From NCBI GenBank assembly GCA_900317925.1, contig ONIQ01000010.1, positions 1 through 55,658 on the forward strand: a DNA stretch of 55,658 nucleotides, in the 5' to 3' direction. Each line of letters begins with the position of its first letter. Position 1 is the stretch's first letter. This DNA comes from an uncultured Bacteroidales bacterium (GTDB taxonomy: Bacteria; Bacteroidota; Bacteroidia; Bacteroidales; UBA932). Under the pieces are notes generated by a model. The model was not told where the DNA came from and searched no databases. It was given only the letters and a program-made list of their open reading frames with translations. Of this stretch, positions 10,285 to 50,271 are shown in pieces. The position numbers and the translations under genes were made by a program.

Positions 10285-11279
10285 TGGCCGACCGGCATTT
10301 CACCGAAGCCATTCTGAAATGGTACCAAGAGAACCGTCGTTCCCTGCCCTGGCGGGGGACGACGGATCCATATCCCGTATGGCTCAGTGAAATAATCTTA
10401 CAACAAACCCGCATCGCCCAGGGGCAGGCCTACTGGGAGCGTTTTATGGAGCGCTTCCCTACCGTCCGTGACCTGGCCGACGCTTCGGAAGACGAAGTCC
10501 TGCGGCTTTGGCAGGGCCTGGGCTATTACAGCCGGGCCCGGAACCTGCACGCCGCCGCCAAACAGATTGCCGCCGCCGGGCGCTTCCCGGATACGCTGGA
10601 CGGTATCCGCGCCTTGAAGGGCGTGGGAGATTATACCGCAGCGGCCATCGGTTCCATCGCCTTCGGTTTGCCAGCCGCCGTGGTGGACGGGAATGTCTAT
10701 CGGGTGCTCGCCCGGTATTTCGGGATTGCCGAACCCATCGGAACACCCCAGGGGAAAAGGATCTTCACCGCACGGGCCCAGGAACTCCTGCCGCCCGGAC
10801 AGGCAGCAGACTTCAATCAGGGAATGATGGATTTCGGGGCACTTCAGTGTACGCCGCAGCATCCGGATTGCCCGTCCTGCCCGCTCCAGCGAACCTGCCG
10901 GGCCTTCCTGGAGGGTCGCACCACCATGCTTCCCGTCAAAAAAGCCGGTCCCGCCATCCGGCAGCGTTTCTTTACCTATTTGTATATTCGCTGCCAAGGC
11001 CAGACCGCTTTCCGCAAACGGCCGGCCGGCGACATTTGGCAGGGCCTTTGGGAGCCCTTGCTTTTTGAAGGACCGTTGCCCGAAGCATACGGGAACGCCG
11101 TCCTGCTGAAAAAAGGAGTCCGGCATGCCTTGACCCACCGGCTCATCGTGGCCGATTTCTATTGTCTCGAGACAACAAAAAAACCGTCCCTTCCGGACGG
11201 TTGGATCTGGATGGATGAAAAGATGCCCGCGCAACTGGGGAAACCCCGTCTTGTGGAGCATCTCCTGTCCCTGCTTTAG
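10284..11279 (+). CDS. mutY: A/G-specific adenine glycosylase MutY
   Basis: 331 aa. The helix-hairpin-helix LKGVGDYTAAAIGSIAFG is followed by the catalytic aspartate in VVDGNVYRVLAR. The catalytic glutamate lies in SEIILQQT. A 4Fe-4S cluster motif C-x6-C-x2-C-x5-C ends the catalytic domain (CTPQHPDCPSCPLQRTC), and a C-terminal Nudix-like domain recognises 8-oxoG. It removes adenine mispaired with 8-oxoguanine. It overlaps adk by one base (TAATG). The C-terminal coding region contains, on the other strand, the terminator of the convergent exopolysaccharide operon, and the last four bases overlap the DUF1573 gene. Confidence 0.95.
   Translation: MADRHFTEAILKWYQENRRSLPWRGTTDPYPVWLSEIILQQTRIAQGQAYWERFMERFPTVRDLADASEDEVLRLWQGLGYYSRARNLHAAAKQIAAAGRFPDTLDGIRALKGVGDYTAAAIGSIAFGLPAAVVDGNVYRVLARYFGIAEPIGTPQGKRIFTARAQELLPPGQAADFNQGMMDFGALQCTPQHPDCPSCPLQRTCRAFLEGRTTMLPVKKAGPAIRQRFFTYLYIRCQGQTAFRKRPAGDIWQGLWEPLLFEGPLPEAYGNAVLLKKGVRHALTHRLIVADFYCLETTKKPSLPDGWIWMDEKMPAQLGKPRLVEHLLSLL
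11177..11202 (-). terminator. Intrinsic terminator of the minus-strand operon, inside mutY
   Basis: AACCGTCC (11182-11189) and GGACGGTT (11195-11202) form an 8-bp stem with a five-base loop. Seven A residues (11177-11183) on the plus strand become the U tract for minus-strand transcription. It lies about 75-100 bases beyond the DUF1573 stop and within the mutY reading frame. Confidence 0.8.
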
Positions 11280-11782
11280 TGTTCTACGTAATAACCCAGA
11301 CCGGTTCCGCGGCCCGTACCTTGAACGATATCGCGCAAAGACTTATCGGTGGGTCTATCGTGTTCGTAGAGTTCCTCGTAATCGTGCTGGTAATTGGCAT
11401 CCGGAACCACATTGATATCGAACCGCATTTCGGCCACTCCCTTGGGCGAGATGTTGCCCCAGATGCGGACGGTATGCACCACCTTGCCCACGTTCTTTTT
11501 GCTATCATAATCCAGGGTCAGATACATGAACCGGCCAGGAGGCACAATCACTTCCCGTTTCACGTTGACAACGATACAGCCGCAGGACGGCTGTATATCG
11601 CAGATTACCAGCGGCACATTCCCGATGTTCGTCACACGGGCCACGATCCGAAGCTGCTGTCCCTGCAGGATGGGATAATAATGGCGGACCGGATCGGAAA
11701 TCATGACTTCCGTAAAGGAGACCTTTTGCGTACAGCCTGCAAGCAGTACGACCGCCATCAGGAAGAGAAGAACGCGTTTCAT
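11276..11782 (-). CDS. DUF1573 domain lipoprotein
   Basis: 168 aa. The N-terminus MKRVLLFLMAVVLLAGC is a lipoprotein signal with lipobox LAGC. The rest is one DUF1573 domain: VARVTNIGNVPLVICDIQPS followed by the hallmark SCGC, then PPGRFMYLTLDYDSK. DUF1573 proteins are immunoglobulin-like exported proteins common in Bacteroidota and their role is unknown. The ATG overlaps the stop of the DUF4838 gene by four bases (ATGA), so this is the last gene of the exopolysaccharide-type operon. It may be an accessory or assembly factor. Confidence 0.8.
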   Translation of the reverse strand: MKRVLLFLMAVVLLAGCTQKVSFTEVMISDPVRHYYPILQGQQLRIVARVTNIGNVPLVICDIQPSCGCIVVNVKREVIVPPGRFMYLTLDYDSKKNVGKVVHTVRIWGNISPKGVAEMRFDINVVPDANYQHDYEELYEHDRPTDKSLRDIVQGTGRGTGLGYYVEH

Positions 11783-13977
11783 AACTTGACCAGGATTTCT
11801 TCTAATGCCAGATCACGCGTATTCGAGGGCGTAAAACGAAGTTCTACCGATTGGGAACCGCTCACATCGGCATCGCCACGGAAGACGACCTCTTCGCCTT
11901 CATCCAGCAGCGATACATCCTGTTCTGGCAGGAGCCGCCCTTTCATCTGGCCGTCCGCCCAGATCTGGACATCTTTCGGAGGAGACATCCGGTGACGCTC
12001 CAGATTCAGGAAGGCAATGGCAAAATGGATGGCGTCCTGGATCTTATCGGCCGGCAGTTCAATGACAAGACCTTCCTGCTGGAACACCTGCCATCCCCAG
12101 TGATAATTCTGCGAAATGCCCAAAACGCCGTCGGTCAGGAAGGTATTCGTCTCCGTTCCGTTTGCGGAATGGATGACCAGCGGTTCTCCCAGGATGACGT
12201 CTCCACGCCAGAGCGCCGTACGGAGCCATTCGTCACATTCACTCTCATAATCGGCCAAATAAATACCGTTTTCGTTTACGCGATCCATATGGTCCATGGC
12301 CGCCCGGTCGTTGTTGGTCAGGATATAAATGTCTTCCTCGGGGGTGATGGCGCCCAAATCAGCCAGCGCAGAGAGGACTTCCGGTTTCACTTCCCACTCA
12401 TCTTCTACCTTGTCGGCAAATCCGCCCGGACCGATTCCGTGAAGACGGACCAGTTCCATATAGGTAAAGGACACGTTCTGGCGGGTTTTCTCGTAAATCA
12501 CCCGCTCGCGGTGGGTCATTTCCACATCTCTCAGGGCGAGGAATTTTGTATAATACTCGCGGAATCCCGGTTCGTAAATATAGGTTTTCACCGCATCCTT
12601 GATACCGCCATACAGCGGGAGCTCTTTTTTCGTCGTCCGGGCCCGTCTTTCCATGGCGATATTCGCTGCTGCCATGAAATCGCCGATATGCGGCATCGCA
12701 TCCTGGTAATAGGTACGCAGTTCTTCGTCAATATCCAGGTCCGGATCGATCAGCATATTGGCCAGAATGAAGGTGAAATGTTCCTGAAGGCAGGAGTAGA
12801 AGTAACCGCTTCCATTCAGGAAAATGCCCTTCACGCCGCGTCGACGGTATTCCTGGATCCGCTGCTGCATCACGGACAAAATCGGATAGGCGGTAATGTA
12901 ATCGTCGAAATTACAAATATAGTCCCAGACATAGATGGTCTTGCACACCTTCTTCCACTGCTCCATCAGGTCGAAGAAATGACGGGCTGCAGGAGAATCC
13001 AGGTTATCCCATGCCCGCGGATAATCGATAGCGGAAAGGAAGACACCCACATTGTCGGGCAACGGTTTGGCCGGAGGCAACCCGGTTGTCAGATAAGCCG
13101 GAATGAAGAAGTGGTGTTTCGGGAAACGTTTCGCCAATTTTTCCACGAACTGCGTTACCGCAGGCGTCGCATTCCGGGCCGTATTGCCGATTCCCTGGCA
13201 ACGCGGGCACATGCAGACGATGGTGTTGTCATTCGGACCGATGGTAATCCGGGACGGGGTCCGCGAGCCGTCCCCGTACTGGTCCAGGATATACCGGACC
13301 GTAAGGTCATACAGTTTCTCGGAAGAAAAACAGAACTGGTCCTTATACGTCATGCTTCCGGAATGGGCGAACAATTCCTCGTCCATGTTCTGGAAACCAT
13401 AGGCGGTGTCGTCATTCGTACCCAGCACCCGTGCCAGTTGATGGCCCCAGAGGCCCCAGTCGTTTTCCAGGTTGTTCAAGCCGAGCAGCCAGGTCATGTC
13501 CGGATTCTGGTTGGCCGGCATGTAAATATCGCGATATTCGAACGGGAAGGTGGCCACCGTATCTTTTTGCGGGAAGATACTGGGCGGCAGGTCTGTCGCG
13601 TCCATGTATTCTTTGTCCTTGCTGACATATTTGATGAACTGATAGACCAGCCAGGTCATCGTCCGCTCATCTTTCGCCGCCAAATAATAGGCGTTCTCGC
13701 CGCGCCTGACCGCATAGTCTCCCCCGAAATCGTCTCCGACATGGAGCGTAACGTCGCAGTTATCCTCGTTTTTCTTGATCGATACGATGGCTACGGATGA
13801 GCGCTTCTGCAAATGACGGGACAGATATTCGGCCATCTTCACCTCGGCCTTTGTATTGCTTTCGGGATGAATATAGTACACGACATCGGCCTTGGCTCTC
13901 CAGAGTTGACAGGAAAGGAAGGTCAGACCGACAAAGGCGAGGATCGCCCAATTAGAAATATACCGTAACTTGGACAT
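11779..13977 (-). CDS. DUF4838-type lipoprotein, probable polysaccharide-active enzyme
   Basis: 732 aa from the ATG at 13977; a TTG two codons earlier is less likely. The lipobox is LSC in GLTFLSC. The N-terminal 130 residues resemble the small alpha/beta domain found before glycosidase barrels (YYIHPESNTKAEVKMAEYL). A large barrel-like region carries C255-x-C257-x2-C260 (VCMCPRCQG), a signature of DUF4838 proteins, related to the alpha-glucuronidase/hexosaminidase architecture. A discoidin-like beta domain probably forms the C-terminus (VELRFTPSNTRD). Its start lies inside the TPR-barrel gene. I infer a periplasmic or surface role in trimming or modifying the polymer, comparable in position to PgaB. 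The substrate is unknown. Confidence 0.7.
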   Translation of the reverse strand: MSKLRYISNWAILAFVGLTFLSCQLWRAKADVVYYIHPESNTKAEVKMAEYLSRHLQKRSSVAIVSIKKNEDNCDVTLHVGDDFGGDYAVRRGENAYYLAAKDERTMTWLVYQFIKYVSKDKEYMDATDLPPSIFPQKDTVATFPFEYRDIYMPANQNPDMTWLLGLNNLENDWGLWGHQLARVLGTNDDTAYGFQNMDEELFAHSGSMTYKDQFCFSSEKLYDLTVRYILDQYGDGSRTPSRITIGPNDNTIVCMCPRCQGIGNTARNATPAVTQFVEKLAKRFPKHHFFIPAYLTTGLPPAKPLPDNVGVFLSAIDYPRAWDNLDSPAARHFFDLMEQWKKVCKTIYVWDYICNFDDYITAYPILSVMQQRIQEYRRRGVKGIFLNGSGYFYSCLQEHFTFILANMLIDPDLDIDEELRTYYQDAMPHIGDFMAAANIAMERRARTTKKELPLYGGIKDAVKTYIYEPGFREYYTKFLALRDVEMTHRERVIYEKTRQNVSFTYMELVRLHGIGPGGFADKVEDEWEVKPEVLSALADLGAITPEEDIYILTNNDRAAMDHMDRVNENGIYLADYESECDEWLRTALWRGDVILGEPLVIHSANGTETNTFLTDGVLGISQNYHWGWQVFQQEGLVIELPADKIQDAIHFAIAFLNLERHRMSPPKDVQIWADGQMKGRLLPEQDVSLLDEGEEVVFRGDADVSGSQSVELRFTPSNTRDLALEEILVKL

Positions 13978-16768
13978 GTGCAATAAAGATATTCCTGTAA
14001 CTAACCCGGCTTTCGCTCTCCGAATACCAGGTATTCCAGGTTCCGGAAAGGGAAAACATCAAACCCGGCGCCGCCAGCCAATTGCCGCCCAAAGCGACAA
14101 AGGAATTCAAATGATTATAGGCGCGCGGGGAATAATAGAAATTAAGGAAATTCAATTCAGGGGCCGTTCCGACACCCACCTGGGCTTCCACGCTGGTCTT
14201 GCCGTCATCGTATGGGAAATACTTTCCGCGCAGGGTGGAATTGAAGAAAAAGCGGTTGCCCAACAGGCCGCCCGTCACCTTGGCGCCCAAGTAGCATTGC
14301 GCCGGCGTAATGCTGGCACCGAGCCACAGGGCTTCCATGTTGGAATGATCCTGCAGGTAACGGTACTGGATGCCCGCTTCCGCATCGAAGGCGGAGAAAT
14401 GGCGGGTAACCGATGCATCCAGGGTCAGTTTCGGGAAATAGGCATAGCCCACCCCGGCCTGTCCCATGAGGGACCAGTTGTCCGACAAGTCAAAATTATA
14501 CTGGACCTGGAATTGCAGGCCACGGCCTCCCGGGCTCTCTTCCGTTGCCTGGTCATCTTCAATCTCCAGGACGGCATCGCGGCCGGTGTAGTTTACCTGT
14601 GCCGTCAGATCGCTTCGTTTGAATTTGCGGTTGTATCCGAGCTGGGCATATCCCACAATCTTATAGTCGTCTCCGAACCGCATCTGGTCGTAACCTGCGA
14701 AAACGGAATTCTTGAACATTTTGTTCTGGAGGGCCAGCATTTGGGCGCGGTACGCTTTTTCTTCCAGGAAGGCAGGACGATAGGTCCGCTGATAATAGAA
14801 GGCGGAATCCCACTGGTGATGATGGGCATACACCTGCCCGCGGGCATAACGGAGCTGTACGTCATCCGGGCTGAAAACCAAGGCCGTATCCAGCACGGTC
14901 TGCGCCTGATCCCATTGTTTCTGCGCCATCAGGGTATCGGCCTGCCGGACCGACATACCGGCATAGGCGCTGGCCAGGTCCGGATCGGCCGGATACATGG
15001 CGAGCATTTCCTTCAGGGACGCCATGGCTTCCTCGTTCCGGCCGCTCTCCGAAAGGAGGACGGCTTCTTTGCGGCGGAACCAGGGATCGTTCGGATAATA
15101 CAGGACGCCTCCCTTGATGTACGGTTCCGGATCGTCGGAAGCGTTGGCCGCATACCGGAGAGCCCAGTAATTGGCGGGATTCATCTCCAGGAGGACATCG
15201 CACATGGCCACCACACGCGGAGAAGCCCCTTCTTCGTTTGCTTCCCGGACAACGGGCATGGCCTTTTCCTCATACAGATTCTTGTAGAATTTACGGGTAA
15301 AACCATCTTCCGCCGCACGGTAGGCGTTCTCCAGCAGGCTCAGGGCTCCGTCCTTGTTCCCTTGTTTTTCCAAAAGCTCCGCGCGATCGGCCGTCACCTG
15401 GTAGACAGGATCGTAAAGCAGGCGCTCGTTCAGTTTTACCTCCGCCTTGTCAAACATACCCGTTTCCCGATAGCACAGCGAGAGGCGACGGACGGCGTTC
15501 TGGCGCTGCTCGGGATCGTCGGCACGGGCATCGACATATTCCAGCGGCGCGATGGCGGCGGCATACTGCCCGTCGGACATCAGCTTGGCGGCATCGTCCA
15601 GCATCAACTCACAATAAGCCAGATTGATATCATACTCTCCCGGGAACTGCTTCGCAGCCGCCTCCAGGGTGCGCCGGGCCGATTTCTGGTCCCCTTTGCG
15701 TAGGTGAACTTCGTGTTCCAGCATGCTGAGCCGAGGCGACGGACCGGTCTTGGCGCGCATTTCTCCGATGTAGGTCAAGGCATCGTCATAATACCCCCGG
15801 CGGATTGACTGCGTCATCATATACTCCAGCGATTCCGGGCTCTTGCTCGAACGATAGACCTTGGCATACAGCTGATAGGCATCGGCATCCTTCTCGATAC
15901 GGGCAGCATCCTCCATCAGCGAATCATACAGGCGCTGCAGTGCGGGCGAGGGATGCTGGGCAAGCTGGTTCCGCACCAGGGACAGGGCGGCCATATTGCG
16001 GCCGCTGTCCATCAGGATTCCGGCCGCCCGACGAATCAGTTCCACATTGCCCGGATTCTCATTCGTCGCATAGATCAGATGGTCCAACGCATCGTCCAAA
16101 CGGCCTTTCCGGATGAGCAGGTTGGCATAGGCGACCTGAGATTCCACATCCTTCGGATTCAGCAGGACCATCTCAGACAAGGCATCTTCCGAAGCATTCA
16201 GGTCACCGCGGATGTGGGCTTCCTGATAGGTCCTCTGAAGCACCTCATAGACATCGGCCGAAATACTCGCATCATGCGGATATATCTTGTTCAGACGACG
16301 TAGGAACTGGTTGGCCATTTCCAGGTTTCCCTCTTTTTTGTACAAGTTGATCTTTCTGAGCCAGAGGCCTTTCCAGTAAGGATTCACTTCCAGCAATTCA
16401 TTCACGTAGCAGATGGCGCTGGAATAATTTCCCGTCGCCTCCTCTACGTTCACCAGCAACTGTTTGGCATCGGTATGGTTGTAATTGATGTGGCAGGCTT
16501 TCACCAGATGATAGCGGGCCTGGTCATAATTCTTGCTGCGGACCCAGTACCGGCCGGCCAGGTAGTGAAGGTTCGGATCGTTCGGGTATTGCGCCAGACC
16601 TTCGTCCAGCAGGGACTTCCCCTTGGCCCAGTGGTGCTGGACAAAGAGGGAATTAACCTGGTCTACGTAATAACCGGGAAGCTTGCGCCTCTTCAGCACA
16701 GCCTCGGAAGAGACGGCCAGGACCAGGGTCATGGCCAACACCATCAGTATGCTGATAACCTTACGCAT
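13952..16768 (-). CDS. TPR protein with C-terminal outer-membrane beta barrel (PgaA/BcsC/NfrA-like exporter)
   Basis: 938 aa. A signal peptide (ILMVLAMTLVLAVSSEA) precedes a long TPR superhelix from about 30 to 670 (for example NDPNLHYLAGRYWVRSKNYD and NPKDVESQVAYANLLIRKG). The last 250 residues are strand-like with aromatic girdles (GYAQLGYNRKFKR, LQFQVQYNFDLSDNWSL) and end in VQVTVYF, an outer-membrane barrel terminus. This TPR-plus-barrel plan is that of exopolysaccharide exporters such as PgaA, AlgK/AlgE and BcsC, and of YaiO-family proteins. It overlaps the glycosyltransferase gene by eight bases and the DUF4838 gene by 26. I infer that it takes the polymer across periplasm and outer membrane. 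Confidence 0.8.
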   Translation of the reverse strand: MRKVISILMVLAMTLVLAVSSEAVLKRRKLPGYYVDQVNSLFVQHHWAKGKSLLDEGLAQYPNDPNLHYLAGRYWVRSKNYDQARYHLVKACHINYNHTDAKQLLVNVEEATGNYSSAICYVNELLEVNPYWKGLWLRKINLYKKEGNLEMANQFLRRLNKIYPHDASISADVYEVLQRTYQEAHIRGDLNASEDALSEMVLLNPKDVESQVAYANLLIRKGRLDDALDHLIYATNENPGNVELIRRAAGILMDSGRNMAALSLVRNQLAQHPSPALQRLYDSLMEDAARIEKDADAYQLYAKVYRSSKSPESLEYMMTQSIRRGYYDDALTYIGEMRAKTGPSPRLSMLEHEVHLRKGDQKSARRTLEAAAKQFPGEYDINLAYCELMLDDAAKLMSDGQYAAAIAPLEYVDARADDPEQRQNAVRRLSLCYRETGMFDKAEVKLNERLLYDPVYQVTADRAELLEKQGNKDGALSLLENAYRAAEDGFTRKFYKNLYEEKAMPVVREANEEGASPRVVAMCDVLLEMNPANYWALRYAANASDDPEPYIKGGVLYYPNDPWFRRKEAVLLSESGRNEEAMASLKEMLAMYPADPDLASAYAGMSVRQADTLMAQKQWDQAQTVLDTALVFSPDDVQLRYARGQVYAHHHQWDSAFYYQRTYRPAFLEEKAYRAQMLALQNKMFKNSVFAGYDQMRFGDDYKIVGYAQLGYNRKFKRSDLTAQVNYTGRDAVLEIEDDQATEESPGGRGLQFQVQYNFDLSDNWSLMGQAGVGYAYFPKLTLDASVTRHFSAFDAEAGIQYRYLQDHSNMEALWLGASITPAQCYLGAKVTGGLLGNRFFFNSTLRGKYFPYDDGKTSVEAQVGVGTAPELNFLNFYYSPRAYNHLNSFVALGGNWLAAPGLMFSLSGTWNTWYSESESRVSYRNIFIAHVQVTVYF

Positions 16769-18260
16769 TGATTTCTTTTTCTACACTTGCCTCTTCGGCT
16801 GCTTCTCCCGCTTCGCCGCCGTTCGTAACCGACGCCTCGGCCGGCTGGAAACCTTTTCGGGTCATGGCGCCCCAGACCATGCGTCTACCCCAGATATGCT
16901 TCCAGTATCCCCGCAGCGAGAAAAACACATTCAAGGGGTGGTACAGGAAGGGTTCCAGCAACGAGGCCAGGAAAAGCCACAGGTAGTCCCGCTGCTTCTT
17001 GAAGCCATGCGCCACGTAATTATCGATGGTAATAATCGTCAAACTCAGGAATTGTGCAAAGCTATACAAGGATAAGAACACAATCCAAATGGTATGATAG
17101 TTAATGGCCTGGATCAGGAAGAGCCAGAGAATCATCAGGTAGCCGGTGAACTCGATGAGCGGGGCGAACAGTTCGAACACCATAATGTACGGAAGCGTAA
17201 ACAAACCATACTGCCGGTATGCCGGGTTGAACACCATATCGCGGTGCACCTGGAACATCTGCAGCAGGCCACGTCCCCAGCGCGTACGTTGACGGGAAAG
17301 GATCTTCAGGTTGGAAGGACCTTCCGTCCAGCAGCAGATCTCCGGAATCTGGACAATCCGGTAGGACTCGCCGCTATCGCACATGTATCGGATCATTCGG
17401 GCGATCATATCCATATCCTCCGCGAACGAGTCTCCGTCGTATCCGCCAGCCTTGATGGCCACGTCCGTGTCGAACAAACCGAAACCGCCGGATACGTTCT
17501 GCAGGGCATTGAAAGTGCTCAGGGCCGTCTTGCCGATGTAGAACGAACGTGCATATTCCAGATCCTGGAAAAGCGGGATCAGGTTATGCGGTGGACGGAC
17601 TTCGCGCATCTGTCCGTTAACCACCTTGCAACCATTGGACATCCGCATCGTCGCACTTACGGCGATCACGCGGATACCGGTATTCATCGTCGGCCAGATA
17701 ATGCGGTACAAGGCTTCCTTGTCCAAGATACAATCCACATCCGTACACACGAAATAGGGATTCGTCACCACATTCACACCGGCGTTGGAGGCATCGGCCT
17801 TCGTACCGCCGTTAACCTTGTCCACCACCGTCAGGCGTTTGAAGACCGGATTGTCGGAGCGGGTTTTATACAAGGCCCGGAACGGCTTGGTCTTGATTTT
17901 TTCGATATAGGCATAAGGGACCTTCTCCAGGTCGAACTGTTCGATGAGCAGGTCCAGGGTCCTGTCCTTTGAACCGTCGTTGACAATGATCACCTCATAA
18001 TCGGGATAGTCCAGGCTCAGCAGGGAATGGACATTATCGATAATGGTCCTTTCCTCGTTATAGGCCGGCGCCACGATGGAAATACCCGTTGCATAAGGCG
18101 AATGGCGAAGTTCCTCGATGGTATTCTTTTCGTTGTGGTAGATGCCGTGAAGGCGGTGTTTGCGCAAAGCCAGGATTACCATCAAGACATAACTCAAGAC
18201 CAGAAATCCCGAGTAGAAGATGACGAAGAAATTGAAGAAATCTATAATCGCCTCACGCAT
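16761..18260 (-). CDS. Processive family 2 glycosyltransferase, membrane polysaccharide synthase
   Basis: 499 aa. One transmembrane helix at about 8-32 precedes the GT-A domain: APAYNEER at 64-71, D95 in VNDG, D174 and D176 in TDVD, acidic pair E281-D282 in AEDMDM, and Q324-x2-R-W328 in QRTRW. Several transmembrane helices follow (about 352-440). This set (D, DxD, ED, QxxRW) defines processive synthases such as BcsA, PgaC and NfrB, which polymerise and move a polysaccharide through the inner membrane. No PilZ domain is visible; the C-terminus is a short acidic tail. Overlaps with both neighbours by eight bases indicate coupled translation. The donor sugar cannot be read from sequence. Confidence 0.9.
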   Translation of the reverse strand: MREAIIDFFNFFVIFYSGFLVLSYVLMVILALRKHRLHGIYHNEKNTIEELRHSPYATGISIVAPAYNEERTIIDNVHSLLSLDYPDYEVIIVNDGSKDRTLDLLIEQFDLEKVPYAYIEKIKTKPFRALYKTRSDNPVFKRLTVVDKVNGGTKADASNAGVNVVTNPYFVCTDVDCILDKEALYRIIWPTMNTGIRVIAVSATMRMSNGCKVVNGQMREVRPPHNLIPLFQDLEYARSFYIGKTALSTFNALQNVSGGFGLFDTDVAIKAGGYDGDSFAEDMDMIARMIRYMCDSGESYRIVQIPEICCWTEGPSNLKILSRQRTRWGRGLLQMFQVHRDMVFNPAYRQYGLFTLPYIMVFELFAPLIEFTGYLMILWLFLIQAINYHTIWIVFLSLYSFAQFLSLTIITIDNYVAHGFKKQRDYLWLFLASLLEPFLYHPLNVFFSLRGYWKHIWGRRMVWGAMTRKGFQPAEASVTNGGEAGEAAEEASVEKEINA

Positions 18261-19446
18261 ACTTCTTGTTGTCTATCAGTGGACACTCAATGTGCTGGAA
18301 GAAAATCTCATATTCTTTCTCTGAAGACGCTTTCAGGTTTTCATATGCGATGCGCCCCCGGATTCCATAGTCGTACAGGGTAGACAGTAATTTCATCCGT
18401 GTCACGGCGTCCGTCGTCTGCCGATAATCATCCACCAGGAAATCCACGACATCCTGCCGGTCCGATTGGATGTTCCCGAAAGCTTCCACCAGGGCGGCAC
18501 GTTCGGCGAAGGAAGCGGAGGCGTACCGATGGAAGAATTCATGCTCGGCCGGGATGTATTTCAATTCTCCCAATGCCTTGATCAGGGCGCAGGCGAAGCG
18601 TTCATCACGGGTATCACGCAACAGCAGAAGGAGCTCCGGGCAGGATTTATCCAATTTCAACAGGCGGATCTCATTCACCGCAAAAATCCGCAGTTCTTCG
18701 TTGACCGGGTTCAGGTTGCACCACTGAATCAGGTTGGGCATGGAAAGACGGTTCTTGACCCGATAGAGAAAAACGTTGTGATACCGGACCATCATCTCCT
18801 CGGAGAAACGGAAGGAGGGATCCTCCTCAATCACCTTGAACGGATAGGAACTGCCGTACCGGGCCGCATGGATACGGGCATAGATTTTCAACTTGGCATC
18901 CTTTGCAAACAGGTACCGGGTTGCAATGGCCTCTTTCAGTTCCGCATCGATATCAGAGATATTCATCAATGCGTTCAGACGTTTCCGCGTATCGCGGGAC
19001 CGGACCTGGCGCTCGAAATAGACCTGCATACGGAAGGTGCGCAGGATTTCACGCCAATTGGCCTTGTTGATGTCGTCCTTGATTTTCGGATAGATATCCA
19101 GCAACATCTGCAGGATGGGACGGACAAAGCGGGGACGCGGTTTGTAGTCCTCCGGGATATCCAGCCGTTCCAGGATCACATCGCGATCCAGGTTCTGGGG
19201 GGTGGTCGCCATTTCCACGACGGCCTGCTGGTATCTGCGGCGGGCACGACGGTCATGCCGTTCATGAATGGTATTCCGATATGTCCGGACACCATCCAGG
19301 AAAAGCAAAACCACGAAGGAAATCAAGAAGAACGTGGTAAAGATGGCACAGAAGCGGACCATCGGCGGGTATTCTGCCAAGCGGTAATAGAGAAGCATTA
19401 TGTAATACTTCCAATATCCAAAACCGCTTAAAACAAAATAATCCAT
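18253..19446 (-). CDS. HEAT-like repeat inner-membrane protein of the exopolysaccharide operon
   Basis: 397 aa from the ATG at 19446. A longer version from a GTG at 19524 would start upstream of the mapped promoter and is rejected. A hydrophobic helix lies near residues 30-55 (CAIFTTFFLISFVVLLFL), after which the protein is soluble and helical. Paired-helix units such as ELRIFAVNEIRLLKLD and RFACALIKALGELKYIP resemble HEAT repeats. The consensus promoter at 19461-19492 lies just upstream, making this the first gene of the operon. It overlaps the synthase gene by eight bases. I infer a scaffold or regulatory partner of the synthase on the cytoplasmic side; no enzymatic motif is seen. Confidence 0.7.
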   Translation of the reverse strand: MDYFVLSGFGYWKYYIMLLYYRLAEYPPMVRFCAIFTTFFLISFVVLLFLDGVRTYRNTIHERHDRRARRRYQQAVVEMATTPQNLDRDVILERLDIPEDYKPRPRFVRPILQMLLDIYPKIKDDINKANWREILRTFRMQVYFERQVRSRDTRKRLNALMNISDIDAELKEAIATRYLFAKDAKLKIYARIHAARYGSSYPFKVIEEDPSFRFSEEMMVRYHNVFLYRVKNRLSMPNLIQWCNLNPVNEELRIFAVNEIRLLKLDKSCPELLLLLRDTRDERFACALIKALGELKYIPAEHEFFHRYASASFAERAALVEAFGNIQSDRQDVVDFLVDDYRQTTDAVTRMKLLSTLYDYGIRGRIAYENLKASSEKEYEIFFQHIECPLIDNKKYA

Positions 19447-19460
19447 TGCCTTAAATCGCA

Positions 19461-19492
19461 CAAAAGTACGGACTATCTGATAAAAATACAAA
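19461..19492 (-). promoter_or_regulatory. Consensus promoter of the exopolysaccharide-type operon
   Basis: On the minus strand TTTG (19489-19492) is separated by exactly 20 bases from TACTTTTG (19461-19468), a full TTTG-N20-TAnnTTTG match. The expected start lies about 11 bases before the ATG at 19446. Confidence 0.88.
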
Positions 19493-50217: not shown

Positions 50218-50248
50218 CAAAGATAGGAATTTTCCAGGGATTTGCAAA
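50218..50248 (-). promoter_or_regulatory. Consensus promoter of etfB-etfA-acyl-CoA dehydrogenase
   Basis: Minus-strand TTTG (50245-50248), 19 bases, then TATCTTTG (50218-50225). Full consensus match, about 38 bases ahead of the etfB ATG. The -33 box is one half of the palindrome TTTGCAAA (50241-50248). Confidence 0.88.
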
Positions 50249-50271
50249 ACCGATAATAATTCGTACCTTTG
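50241..50271 (+). promoter_or_regulatory. Consensus promoter of the 50297 lipoprotein gene
   Basis: TTTG (50241-50244), 19 bases, then TACCTTTG (50264-50271); full match. Its -33 box is the other half of TTTGCAAA, immediately abutting the divergent etfB -33 box. Confidence 0.88.

What the first reader, a model, noticed from the sequence alone, without database searches (positions are those of the whole stretch)
11276..19492. Possible uncharacterised synthase-dependent exopolysaccharide secretion operon
Five minus-strand genes overlap one another by 4-26 bases. In order they encode a HEAT-like membrane protein, a processive glycosyltransferase with D95, D174/D176, E281-D282 and QRTRW, a TPR protein ending in an outer-membrane barrel, a DUF4838 lipoprotein and a DUF1573 lipoprotein. 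Established parallels (Pga, Bcs, Alg, Nfr) combine an inner-membrane synthase with a TPR-barrel exporter and a periplasmic polymer-modifying enzyme. The HEAT-like subunit, the DUF4838 enzyme and the DUF1573 protein are not parts of those systems as I know them, and no PilZ domain is present. The polymer and its control are unknown.
Basis: partly seen in the sequence, partly recalled or inferred. Interest (0 to 1): 0.8.

Follow-up and report, generated by a model that had tools for sequence, protein, structure and literature searches.

The report
Polysaccharide secretion operon with HEAT partner
Five adjacent bacterial genes look like a machine that builds a sugar polymer and pushes it out through both membranes, and the polymer-building enzyme belongs to a family that nearly always comes with a HEAT-repeat partner protein and, in most close relatives but not here, with a signalling receiver protein.

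Summary
In detail: five overlapping minus-strand genes encode a HEAT membrane protein, a GT2 synthase, a TPR protein with a YaiO barrel, a DUF4838 and a DUF1573 lipoprotein, behind a Bacteroidota-type promoter.

The secretion-operon reading gains support. In 247 genomes of the class, 32 of 35 GT2 places have the HEAT gene next door, using all 32 strong HEAT matches. The pair also occurs in Bacillota and Bdellovibrio. A stand-alone receiver accompanies 60 of 70 other Bacteroidota-side relatives but 1 of 13 in the window's clade. That clade (support 100/99) shows one gain of DUF1573 and has DUF4838 in 13 of 13 loci, two cut by contig ends. The window genome showed no stand-alone receiver, GGDEF or PilZ.

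I read it as a receiver-less branch of a HEAT-partnered synthase-dependent system. Ten paper searches showed nothing on a HEAT-GT2 pair.

The parts
19461..19492 (-). Bacteroidota-type promoter pattern TTTG-N20-TACTTTTG, 14 bases before the HEAT gene's ATG
   Evidence: pattern search: 7 in window, 0.22 expected; sequence; the -33/-7 consensus is recalled knowledge
18253..19446 (-). HEAT-repeat membrane protein, 397 aa from ATG; one strongly hydrophobic segment at residues 32-50 followed by a basic stretch, rest predicted cytoplasmic
16761..18260 (-). processive GT2 polysaccharide synthase, 499 aa (D95, D174/D176, E281-D282, QRTRW)
13952..16768 (-). TPR protein with C-terminal YaiO outer-membrane barrel, 938 aa; signal-peptide-like start; last residue F
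13955..14713 (-). barrel region of the TPR protein (residues 686-938; Pfam YaiO match 686-871)
   Evidence: PF19413; amphipathic strand-like segments 14 against 8.6 in shuffles, for residues 680-938
11779..13977 (-). DUF4838 lipoprotein with glycoside-hydrolase-like flanking domains
   Evidence: PF16126 1e-34; profile matches GH20 beta-hexosaminidase 6q63 at both ends; invariant R151, H181, C218, D252, C259, C262, D354, E571; lipobox read by eye
11276..11782 (-). DUF1573 Ig-like lipoprotein, 168 aa (LAGC lipobox)
   Evidence: PF07610 2e-13; lipobox model PF08139 0.0018, just below its cut-off
11182..11202 (-). terminator-like stem-loop (8 pairs) with T tail
   Evidence: consensus match only, number of such sites not above chance

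Best explanation
This is a synthase-dependent polysaccharide secretion operon of a HEAT-partnered kind. The GT2 enzyme polymerises a nucleotide sugar on the cytoplasmic side and threads the chain through the inner membrane (inferred from motifs and homology to PgaC). The HEAT protein, held in the inner membrane by an N-terminal helix with its solenoid in the cytoplasm, sits on the synthase and gates it; in most Bacteroidota relatives a phosphorylated stand-alone receiver is the likely input. In this branch the receiver gene is gone, so the operon is probably switched by transcription, by another cytoplasmic ligand of HEAT, or is always on once made. The DUF4838 lipoprotein trims or cuts the polymer in the periplasm, the TPR solenoid guides it and the YaiO barrel lets it out. 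DUF1573 is a periplasmic accessory of this branch. Shown by computation: gene content, motifs, HEAT-GT2 pairing, clade history, no receiver found in the genome. Inferred: secretion, gating, enzyme activity. My step estimates: secretion machine 0.85; HEAT as regulatory partner 0.6; receiver-to-HEAT signalling in relatives 0.5; DUF4838 cutting the same polymer 0.5.
For: GT2 catalytic set invariant in 21 sequences and homology to E. coli PgaC (hhalign 99.8%; 24% over 364 aa). In 247 genomes, 32 of 35 GT2 places at E<=1e-40 have a HEAT match within 174 bases (31 of 32 same strand), using all 32 HEAT matches at E<=5.7e-23; the next HEAT hits, 3.4e-18 and weaker, are none of them beside a listed GT2. 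14 of the 32 HEAT proteins were rows of the profile, 18 were not; at most 6 or 7 candidates per genome were scored. In GT2-chosen loci HEAT is directly upstream in 103 of 111 eligible places; in loci outside the model's training set, 74 of 78. HEAT and GT2 share one polypeptide in L119 (HEAT over Pfam's cut-off) and L107 (below it), probably L114 (marginal). Receivers: 59 of 102 within 4.5 kb upstream against 3 of 72 in the next 4.5 kb. Pairwise distances of GT2, HEAT and receiver correlate (0.79, 0.66, 0.65 over 61 loci; 0 of 2000 permutations each). Window clade 13 rows, 100/99; DUF1573 one change with the two cut loci left out. Precedent: EpsW, a single-domain receiver, activates an EPS-initiating transferase in Myxococcus xanthus (PMC12802240; abstract and passages).
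Against: No structure could be predicted, so neither the barrel nor a HEAT-GT2 contact was tested. YaiO is not matched in 2 of 13 clade exporters; L008 and L010 show no excess of amphipathic strands; hhalign of the exporter family against single E. coli sequences gave 17% for YaiO and 0.3% for PgaA's barrel. The HEAT family has no invariant column. Gene pairing and correlated distances show co-inheritance, not contact, and shared species history alone would give some correlation. 8 of 70 Bacteroidota-side loci outside the clade have no receiver of any length nearby, so the receiver is not indispensable. In L101 and L110 the receiver gene beside HEAT also holds a GGDEF domain, so c-di-GMP may take part in some relatives. 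DUF4838 lies at the GT2 locus in only 7 of 14 genomes with a match; 5 of the other 7 have no GT2 match, 2 have it on another contig. The terminator is not above chance.
Confidence: 0.7

Rival explanations
1. HEAT is an assembly or stability factor for the synthase, like a chaperone or scaffold, not a regulatory gate; the receiver acts on something else and happens to be co-transcribed.
For: HEAT solenoids are generic scaffolds (recalled); no invariant columns; the window clade keeps HEAT without the receiver.
Against: Stand-alone receivers sit in the same cluster in 60 of 70 Bacteroidota-side loci outside the window clade, and in distant phyla receiver genes of other make-up (tandem receivers, receiver plus GGDEF) lie just upstream of HEAT (L097, L101, L105, L110, L115).
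Confidence: 0.3
2. The product stays in the cell envelope (a glycolipid, periplasmic glucan or capsule-like anchored polymer) instead of being released through the barrel.
For: Sulfatase-superfamily proteins, one of them weakly like LtaS and phosphoglycerol transferase, occur in related clusters; Gram-positive relatives, which have no outer membrane, keep HEAT-GT2.
Against: A long TPR exporter in 13 of 13 clade loci, YaiO matched in 11 of them and a terminal F in 13; processive QxxRW motif invariant.
Confidence: 0.2
3. The system is a divergent PNAG (Pga) machine: the GT2 makes a beta-1,6-GlcNAc polymer.
For: PgaC_IcaA is the best NCBIfam model (1e-31), PgaA's model also matches the exporter (4e-12), and PgaC is the nearest of the three E. 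coli synthases compared.
Against: 110 bits against a cut-off of 422 for PgaC and 45 against 367 for PgaA; no PgaB deacetylase or PgaD model among the matches shown for the five proteins.
Confidence: 0.12
4. Chance neighbours: the five genes are not one unit.
For: None found.
Against: Overlapping frames, one promoter pattern, all five genes in order in 11 of 13 clade loci, the other 2 cut by contig ends.
Confidence: 0.01

Closest known systems
Pga (PNAG) system, E. coli pgaABCD
   Same: inner-membrane GT2 synthase (homologous), exporter matching the same TPR profile, periplasmic enzyme PgaB
   Different: GT2 only 24% identical and far under the PgaC cut-off; no PgaB or PgaD match; HEAT partner instead; no GGDEF or PilZ in the window genome
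E. coli yaiS-yaiP-yaiX-yaiO cluster (uncharacterised as far as I know)
   Same: GT2 plus YaiO barrel gene
   Different: no HEAT and no TPR extension in the annotation; has a deacetylase and an acyltransferase pseudogene; GT2 aligns over only 62 residues by BLAST (profile E 1.9e-18)
Nfr system, E. coli nfrA-nfrB
   Same: GT2 synthase plus large outer-membrane exporter
   Different: NfrB is annotated as c-di-GMP-activated; GT2 similarity weak (1.8e-7); no HEAT annotated
Cellulose (Bcs)
   Same: GT2 synthase, TPR-barrel exporter, periplasmic hydrolase (parts recalled)
   Different: CelA model 22.5 bits against 699; no BcsB or PilZ match
EpsW-EpsZ of Myxococcus xanthus (PMC12802240, abstract and passages)
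   Same: single-domain receiver that switches an EPS transferase after translation: works like what I propose for the receiver-bearing relatives
   Different: its target is a monotopic phosphoglycosyl transferase of a Wzx/Wzy pathway; no HEAT-repeat protein in the passages I read; the window lacks a receiver

Membership tests
synthase-dependent exopolysaccharide system (definition in PMC7112194, passages read) | inner-membrane processive polysaccharide synthase | tested here: met
   GT2 motifs invariant; PgaC homology
synthase-dependent exopolysaccharide system (definition in PMC7112194, passages read) | c-di-GMP-binding regulatory domain or co-polymerase (given there as typical) | tested here: not met
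   no PilZ or GGDEF among the matches shown for the five proteins; no GGDEF or PilZ match in the 95%-complete genome. Other c-di-GMP receptors were not searched
synthase-dependent exopolysaccharide system (definition in PMC7112194, passages read) | periplasmic polymer-modifying enzyme | tested here: inconclusive
   DUF4838 lipoprotein with hydrolase-like flanking domains; activity untested
synthase-dependent exopolysaccharide system (definition in PMC7112194, passages read) | periplasmic TPR domain with outer-membrane pore | tested here: met
   Pfam TPR and YaiO over cut-off; strand pattern; by sequence only, no structure
Pga (PNAG) | PgaC synthase above the NCBIfam cut-off | tested here: not met
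   110.3 bits against 422.3
Pga (PNAG) | PgaA exporter above the NCBIfam cut-off | tested here: not met
   45.2 bits against 366.65
Pga (PNAG) | PgaB deacetylase/hydrolase and PgaD in the operon | tested here: not met
   no such match among the five proteins
Bcs (cellulose) | BcsA-type synthase with PilZ, and BcsB | tested here: not met
   CelA 22.5 bits against 699.1; no PilZ or BcsB hit
YaiO outer-membrane barrel family (PF19413) | domain score over gathering cut-off | tested here: met
   43 and 45.8 bits against 23.9
HEAT-GT2 synthase family defined here | family HEAT gene directly beside a family GT2 gene | tested here: met
HEAT-GT2 synthase family defined here | stand-alone receiver in the cluster (usual, not universal) | tested here: not met
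   none beside the operon; the genome's 5 receiver matches all sit in proteins of about 217-383 aa that I read as having output regions
EpsW-type receiver control | phosphorylated receiver binds and activates the synthase complex | not testable with these tools
   needs binding and activity assays
outer-membrane beta-barrel fold | barrel in a predicted or solved structure | not tested
   structure prediction switched off

The most novel reading that the evidence does not exclude
HEAT membrane proteins are the constant gating subunit of a cross-phylum class of processive polysaccharide synthases, switched by direct contact with phosphorylated receiver domains rather than by c-di-GMP bound to PilZ (a few relatives, L101 and L110, may feed c-di-GMP in through a receiver-GGDEF protein). 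The class is modular at the outside (YaiO barrel with or without long TPR, DUF4838, CotH, LtaS-like or deacetylase-like modules). The window's clade has lost the receiver and runs the gate by another input.
Probability: 0.4. Interest if true: 0.85.

Novelty: new variant of a known kind. Interest (0 to 1): 0.66.

Why it matters
A 2020 survey lists five synthase-dependent polymers and names a c-di-GMP-binding subunit as typical (PMC7112194, passages). This family has a different constant partner, HEAT, and a different likely input, the two-component receiver. It could explain how Bacteroidota, many of which lack GGDEF proteins (recalled; here no match in the window genome nor in the control Bacteroides ihuae), control a matrix polymer. 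It offers a clear test set: close relatives with and without the receiver.

Tried and rejected
Rejected: Pga, Bcs, Nfr or Yai membership; chance clustering; a link to the Flavobacterium psychrophilum glycosyltransferase fpgA (PMC4293000, passages), a gene cloned on a 1105-bp fragment with a different operon partner; a link to the zetaproteobacterial sfz stalk cluster (PMC8250860, outline and passages), where no HEAT repeat is mentioned in the passages and c-di-GMP sites are claimed. Papers in which 'HEAT repeat' turned out unrelated, passages only: PMC12419801 (beta-catenin), PMC3826837 (effector XopN), PMC10434189 (a B. thetaiotaomicron gene in a table, beside DUF4876 and a TonB receptor).

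Led nowhere: NCBIfam for six unknown proteins of 382-392 aa in relatives' clusters (0 hits each); hhalign of the exporter family against PgaA's barrel. Paper searches, ten in all: two returned no paper at all, only the last listed a paper on a single-domain receiver controlling EPS, and no title or abstract start that I saw describes HEAT with a GT2 synthase. Seven papers were opened, none in full. The library holds open-licence papers only.

Rows dropped: in the 103 of 111 count, 5 GT2 places at contig edges (under 900 bases upstream) and 5 second copies of tandem GT2 pairs were left out of 121, and an overlap of up to 700 bases was allowed because ORFs were called from the first start codon. 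The 8 misses: L020 (HEAT match next door but on the other strand and joined to a sulfatase domain), L041-L043 (distant cousins), L107, L114, L119 (long ORFs with HEAT-like N-terminal parts) and L123. Of the 13 clade loci L044 has only 724 bases upstream, so a receiver there could be missed. DUF1573-like hits too weak for my cut-off lie on the other strand in L021 and L023. A list of GT2 ORFs over 1000 aa printed is incomplete, because my script misread minus-strand names.


Full report
WHAT IS THERE. Five minus-strand ORFs overlap one another between 11276 and 19446: HEAT, GT2, TPR-YaiO, DUF4838, DUF1573. A mutY-like and an obg-like gene flank them on the plus strand. The ATG of the HEAT gene follows at 19446. 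The -33/-7 consensus for Bacteroidota is recalled.

THE SYNTHASE. Pfam places protein 2 in GT2. In 21 aligned sequences the residues expected of a processive membrane synthase are invariant. Of three E. coli synthases compared (PgaC, YaiP, NfrB) the nearest is PgaC, 24% over 364 residues, and the profile aligns with PgaC up to QRxRW at 99.8% probability. NCBIfam's PgaC model scores 110 bits, far below its cut-off of 422.

THE HEAT PARTNER. The window protein matches HEAT_2 only weakly, but 27 of 30 aligned family members match it at E<=0.01, best 7e-37. In 247 genomes of the class the GT2 was found at 35 places in 31 genomes at E<=1e-40. The HEAT profile was found at 32 places down to 5.7e-23, with a gap to the next hit at 3.4e-18; I set the line at that gap after seeing it. 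The two sets pair one to one, matches within 174 bases, 31 of 32 on one strand; the three unpaired GT2 places are the three weakest. Fourteen of the 32 HEAT proteins were rows of the profile and so match by construction; 18 were not. These searches scored at most 6 or 7 candidates per genome. Across GT2-chosen loci HEAT lies directly upstream in 103 of 111 eligible places, and in 74 of 78 of the named set, which the HEAT model was not trained on. In L119 (Spirochaetales MAG) HEAT and GT2 share one polypeptide with HEAT_2 just over its cut-off, in L107 (Clostridium MAG) below it; L114 (Bacillota MAG) has the same layout with only a marginal HEAT match. Topology: one hydrophobic segment at residues 32-50 of the 397-residue form and a basic stretch some residues after it visible in the translation, so by the positive-inside rule the solenoid is cytoplasmic.

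THE MISSING RECEIVER. A stand-alone receiver (95-190 aa, same strand) lies within 4.5 kb upstream of GT2 in 59 of 102 places, against 3 of 72 in the next 4.5 kb; downstream it is 8 of 102 against 1 of 73. Among 69 such receivers the columns I take for the acidic pair are kept in 87 and 94%, the phospho-acceptor Asp in 97% and the Lys in 100%. Hybrid kinases sit next door in some, for example a 1309-residue one with HisKA, two receivers and Hpt in L084. In five loci of other phyla (L097, L101, L105, L110, L115) the gene just upstream of HEAT holds two receivers, with a GGDEF domain as well in L101 and L110; so c-di-GMP may matter there. In the window's own clade 1 of 13 has a receiver within 4 kb (L050; L046 has two at about 5.7 kb downstream; L044 has too little upstream sequence to tell), against 60 of 70 in the other Bacteroidota-side loci (62 of 70 counting longer receiver proteins). 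These loci share ancestry, so the Fisher values printed overstate independence; on the careful tree the clade has support 100/99 and DUF1573 changes once, the two contig-cut loci left out. The window genome holds five receiver matches, in an NtrC-like, an OmpR-like, a NarL-like and two LytTR-like proteins by my reading of the sequences, and no GGDEF or PilZ match; it is 95% complete, so a missed gene is possible.

THE EXPORTER AND THE ENZYMES. YaiO is matched in 34 of 36 aligned exporters and in 11 of the 13 of the window's clade, and the last residue is F in 13 of those 13. In many relatives the exporter is about 400-440 residues; in the window's clade and its nearest kin it is 937-1013 residues with long TPR runs. 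The barrel region holds 14 amphipathic strand-like segments against 8.6 in shuffles (1 of 500 as high). E. coli PgaA's barrel gives 16 against 10.0 and YaiO 11 against 7.1; the two TPR controls show no excess and the DUF4838 control little (29 against 25.3); L008 and L010 show none, L047, L017 and L037 some (z 1.8 to 2.3). DUF4838 is present in 13 of 13 clade loci, two of them cut by contig ends. Its profile matches a GH20 beta-hexosaminidase (6q63, 8e-23) at the N-terminal and C-terminal domains, not in the middle, and weakly (0.005 to 0.04) the N-terminal parts of BPa0997 and xylan alpha-glucuronidase. Invariant C218, C259, C262, R151, H181, D252, D354 and E571 suggest a metal or structural knot plus an active site; which residues act is unknown. 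Elsewhere in the family the clusters hold CotH (L012, L022), a sulfatase-superfamily domain (fused to GT2 in L016 and L039, separate in L034, fused to HEAT in L020) or a sub-threshold polysaccharide-deacetylase match (L027).

MECHANISM. GT2 makes and translocates the chain; HEAT gates it; in relatives the phosphorylated receiver is the probable input; TPR and barrel export; DUF4838 processes. Co-inheritance is supported by distance correlations over 61 loci carrying all three genes (GT2-HEAT 0.79, GT2-receiver 0.66, HEAT-receiver 0.65; 0 of 2000 permutations each), though shared species history alone would give some. A direct precedent for a single-domain receiver acting on an EPS transferase after translation is EpsW-EpsZ (PMC12802240; abstract and passages). 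For the window clade the input to HEAT is open.

NOVELTY. The kind, synthase-dependent secretion, is known. The constant HEAT partner and likely receiver control are described in none of the titles and abstract starts listed by ten searches of the open library nor in the passages of the seven papers opened. Subscription papers were not searched, so a description elsewhere is possible. I file it as a new variant of a known kind.

Noticed in passing
L053, L054, L055, L057, L120: Two family GT2 genes stand in tandem in one cluster after HEAT (followed by the TPR exporter in four, by DUF4838 in three), which might make a two-sugar polymer.
   Followed up: no
L016:10477-14259, L039:6937-10374, L020:10711-13995, L034:10500-12929: Sulfatase-superfamily domains (in L034 weakly like LtaS) are fused to the GT2, fused to the HEAT protein, or encoded separately in the same cluster, suggesting phospho-group decoration of the polymer.
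   Followed up: partly
L012:7438-8796, L022:6737-8071: CotH-kinase-family genes lie inside the receiver-YaiO-HEAT-GT2 cluster.
   Followed up: no
L018:7960-9114, L021:8135-9283, L036:9391-10566, L037:11655-12827: Proteins of 382-391 aa with one hydrophobic segment sit in the clusters and match no Pfam or NCBIfam model at E<=0.1.
   Followed up: partly
L041-L043: A more distant GT2 subfamily (33-34% identical) comes without a HEAT match; in L041 and L043 it precedes an exporter-like protein of about 520 aa and proteins of about 1050 and 610 aa, perhaps a sister export system.
   Followed up: no
L053, L092, L095 record titles: MAGs labelled Beijerinckiaceae, Mesorhizobium and Klebsiella pneumoniae carry this system; L053 groups with Chitinophaga in the tree, so its label looks wrong.
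   Followed up: partly
window 50218-50271: Two promoter-like patterns face away from each other and overlap at their upstream ends, a divergent promoter pair.
   Followed up: no
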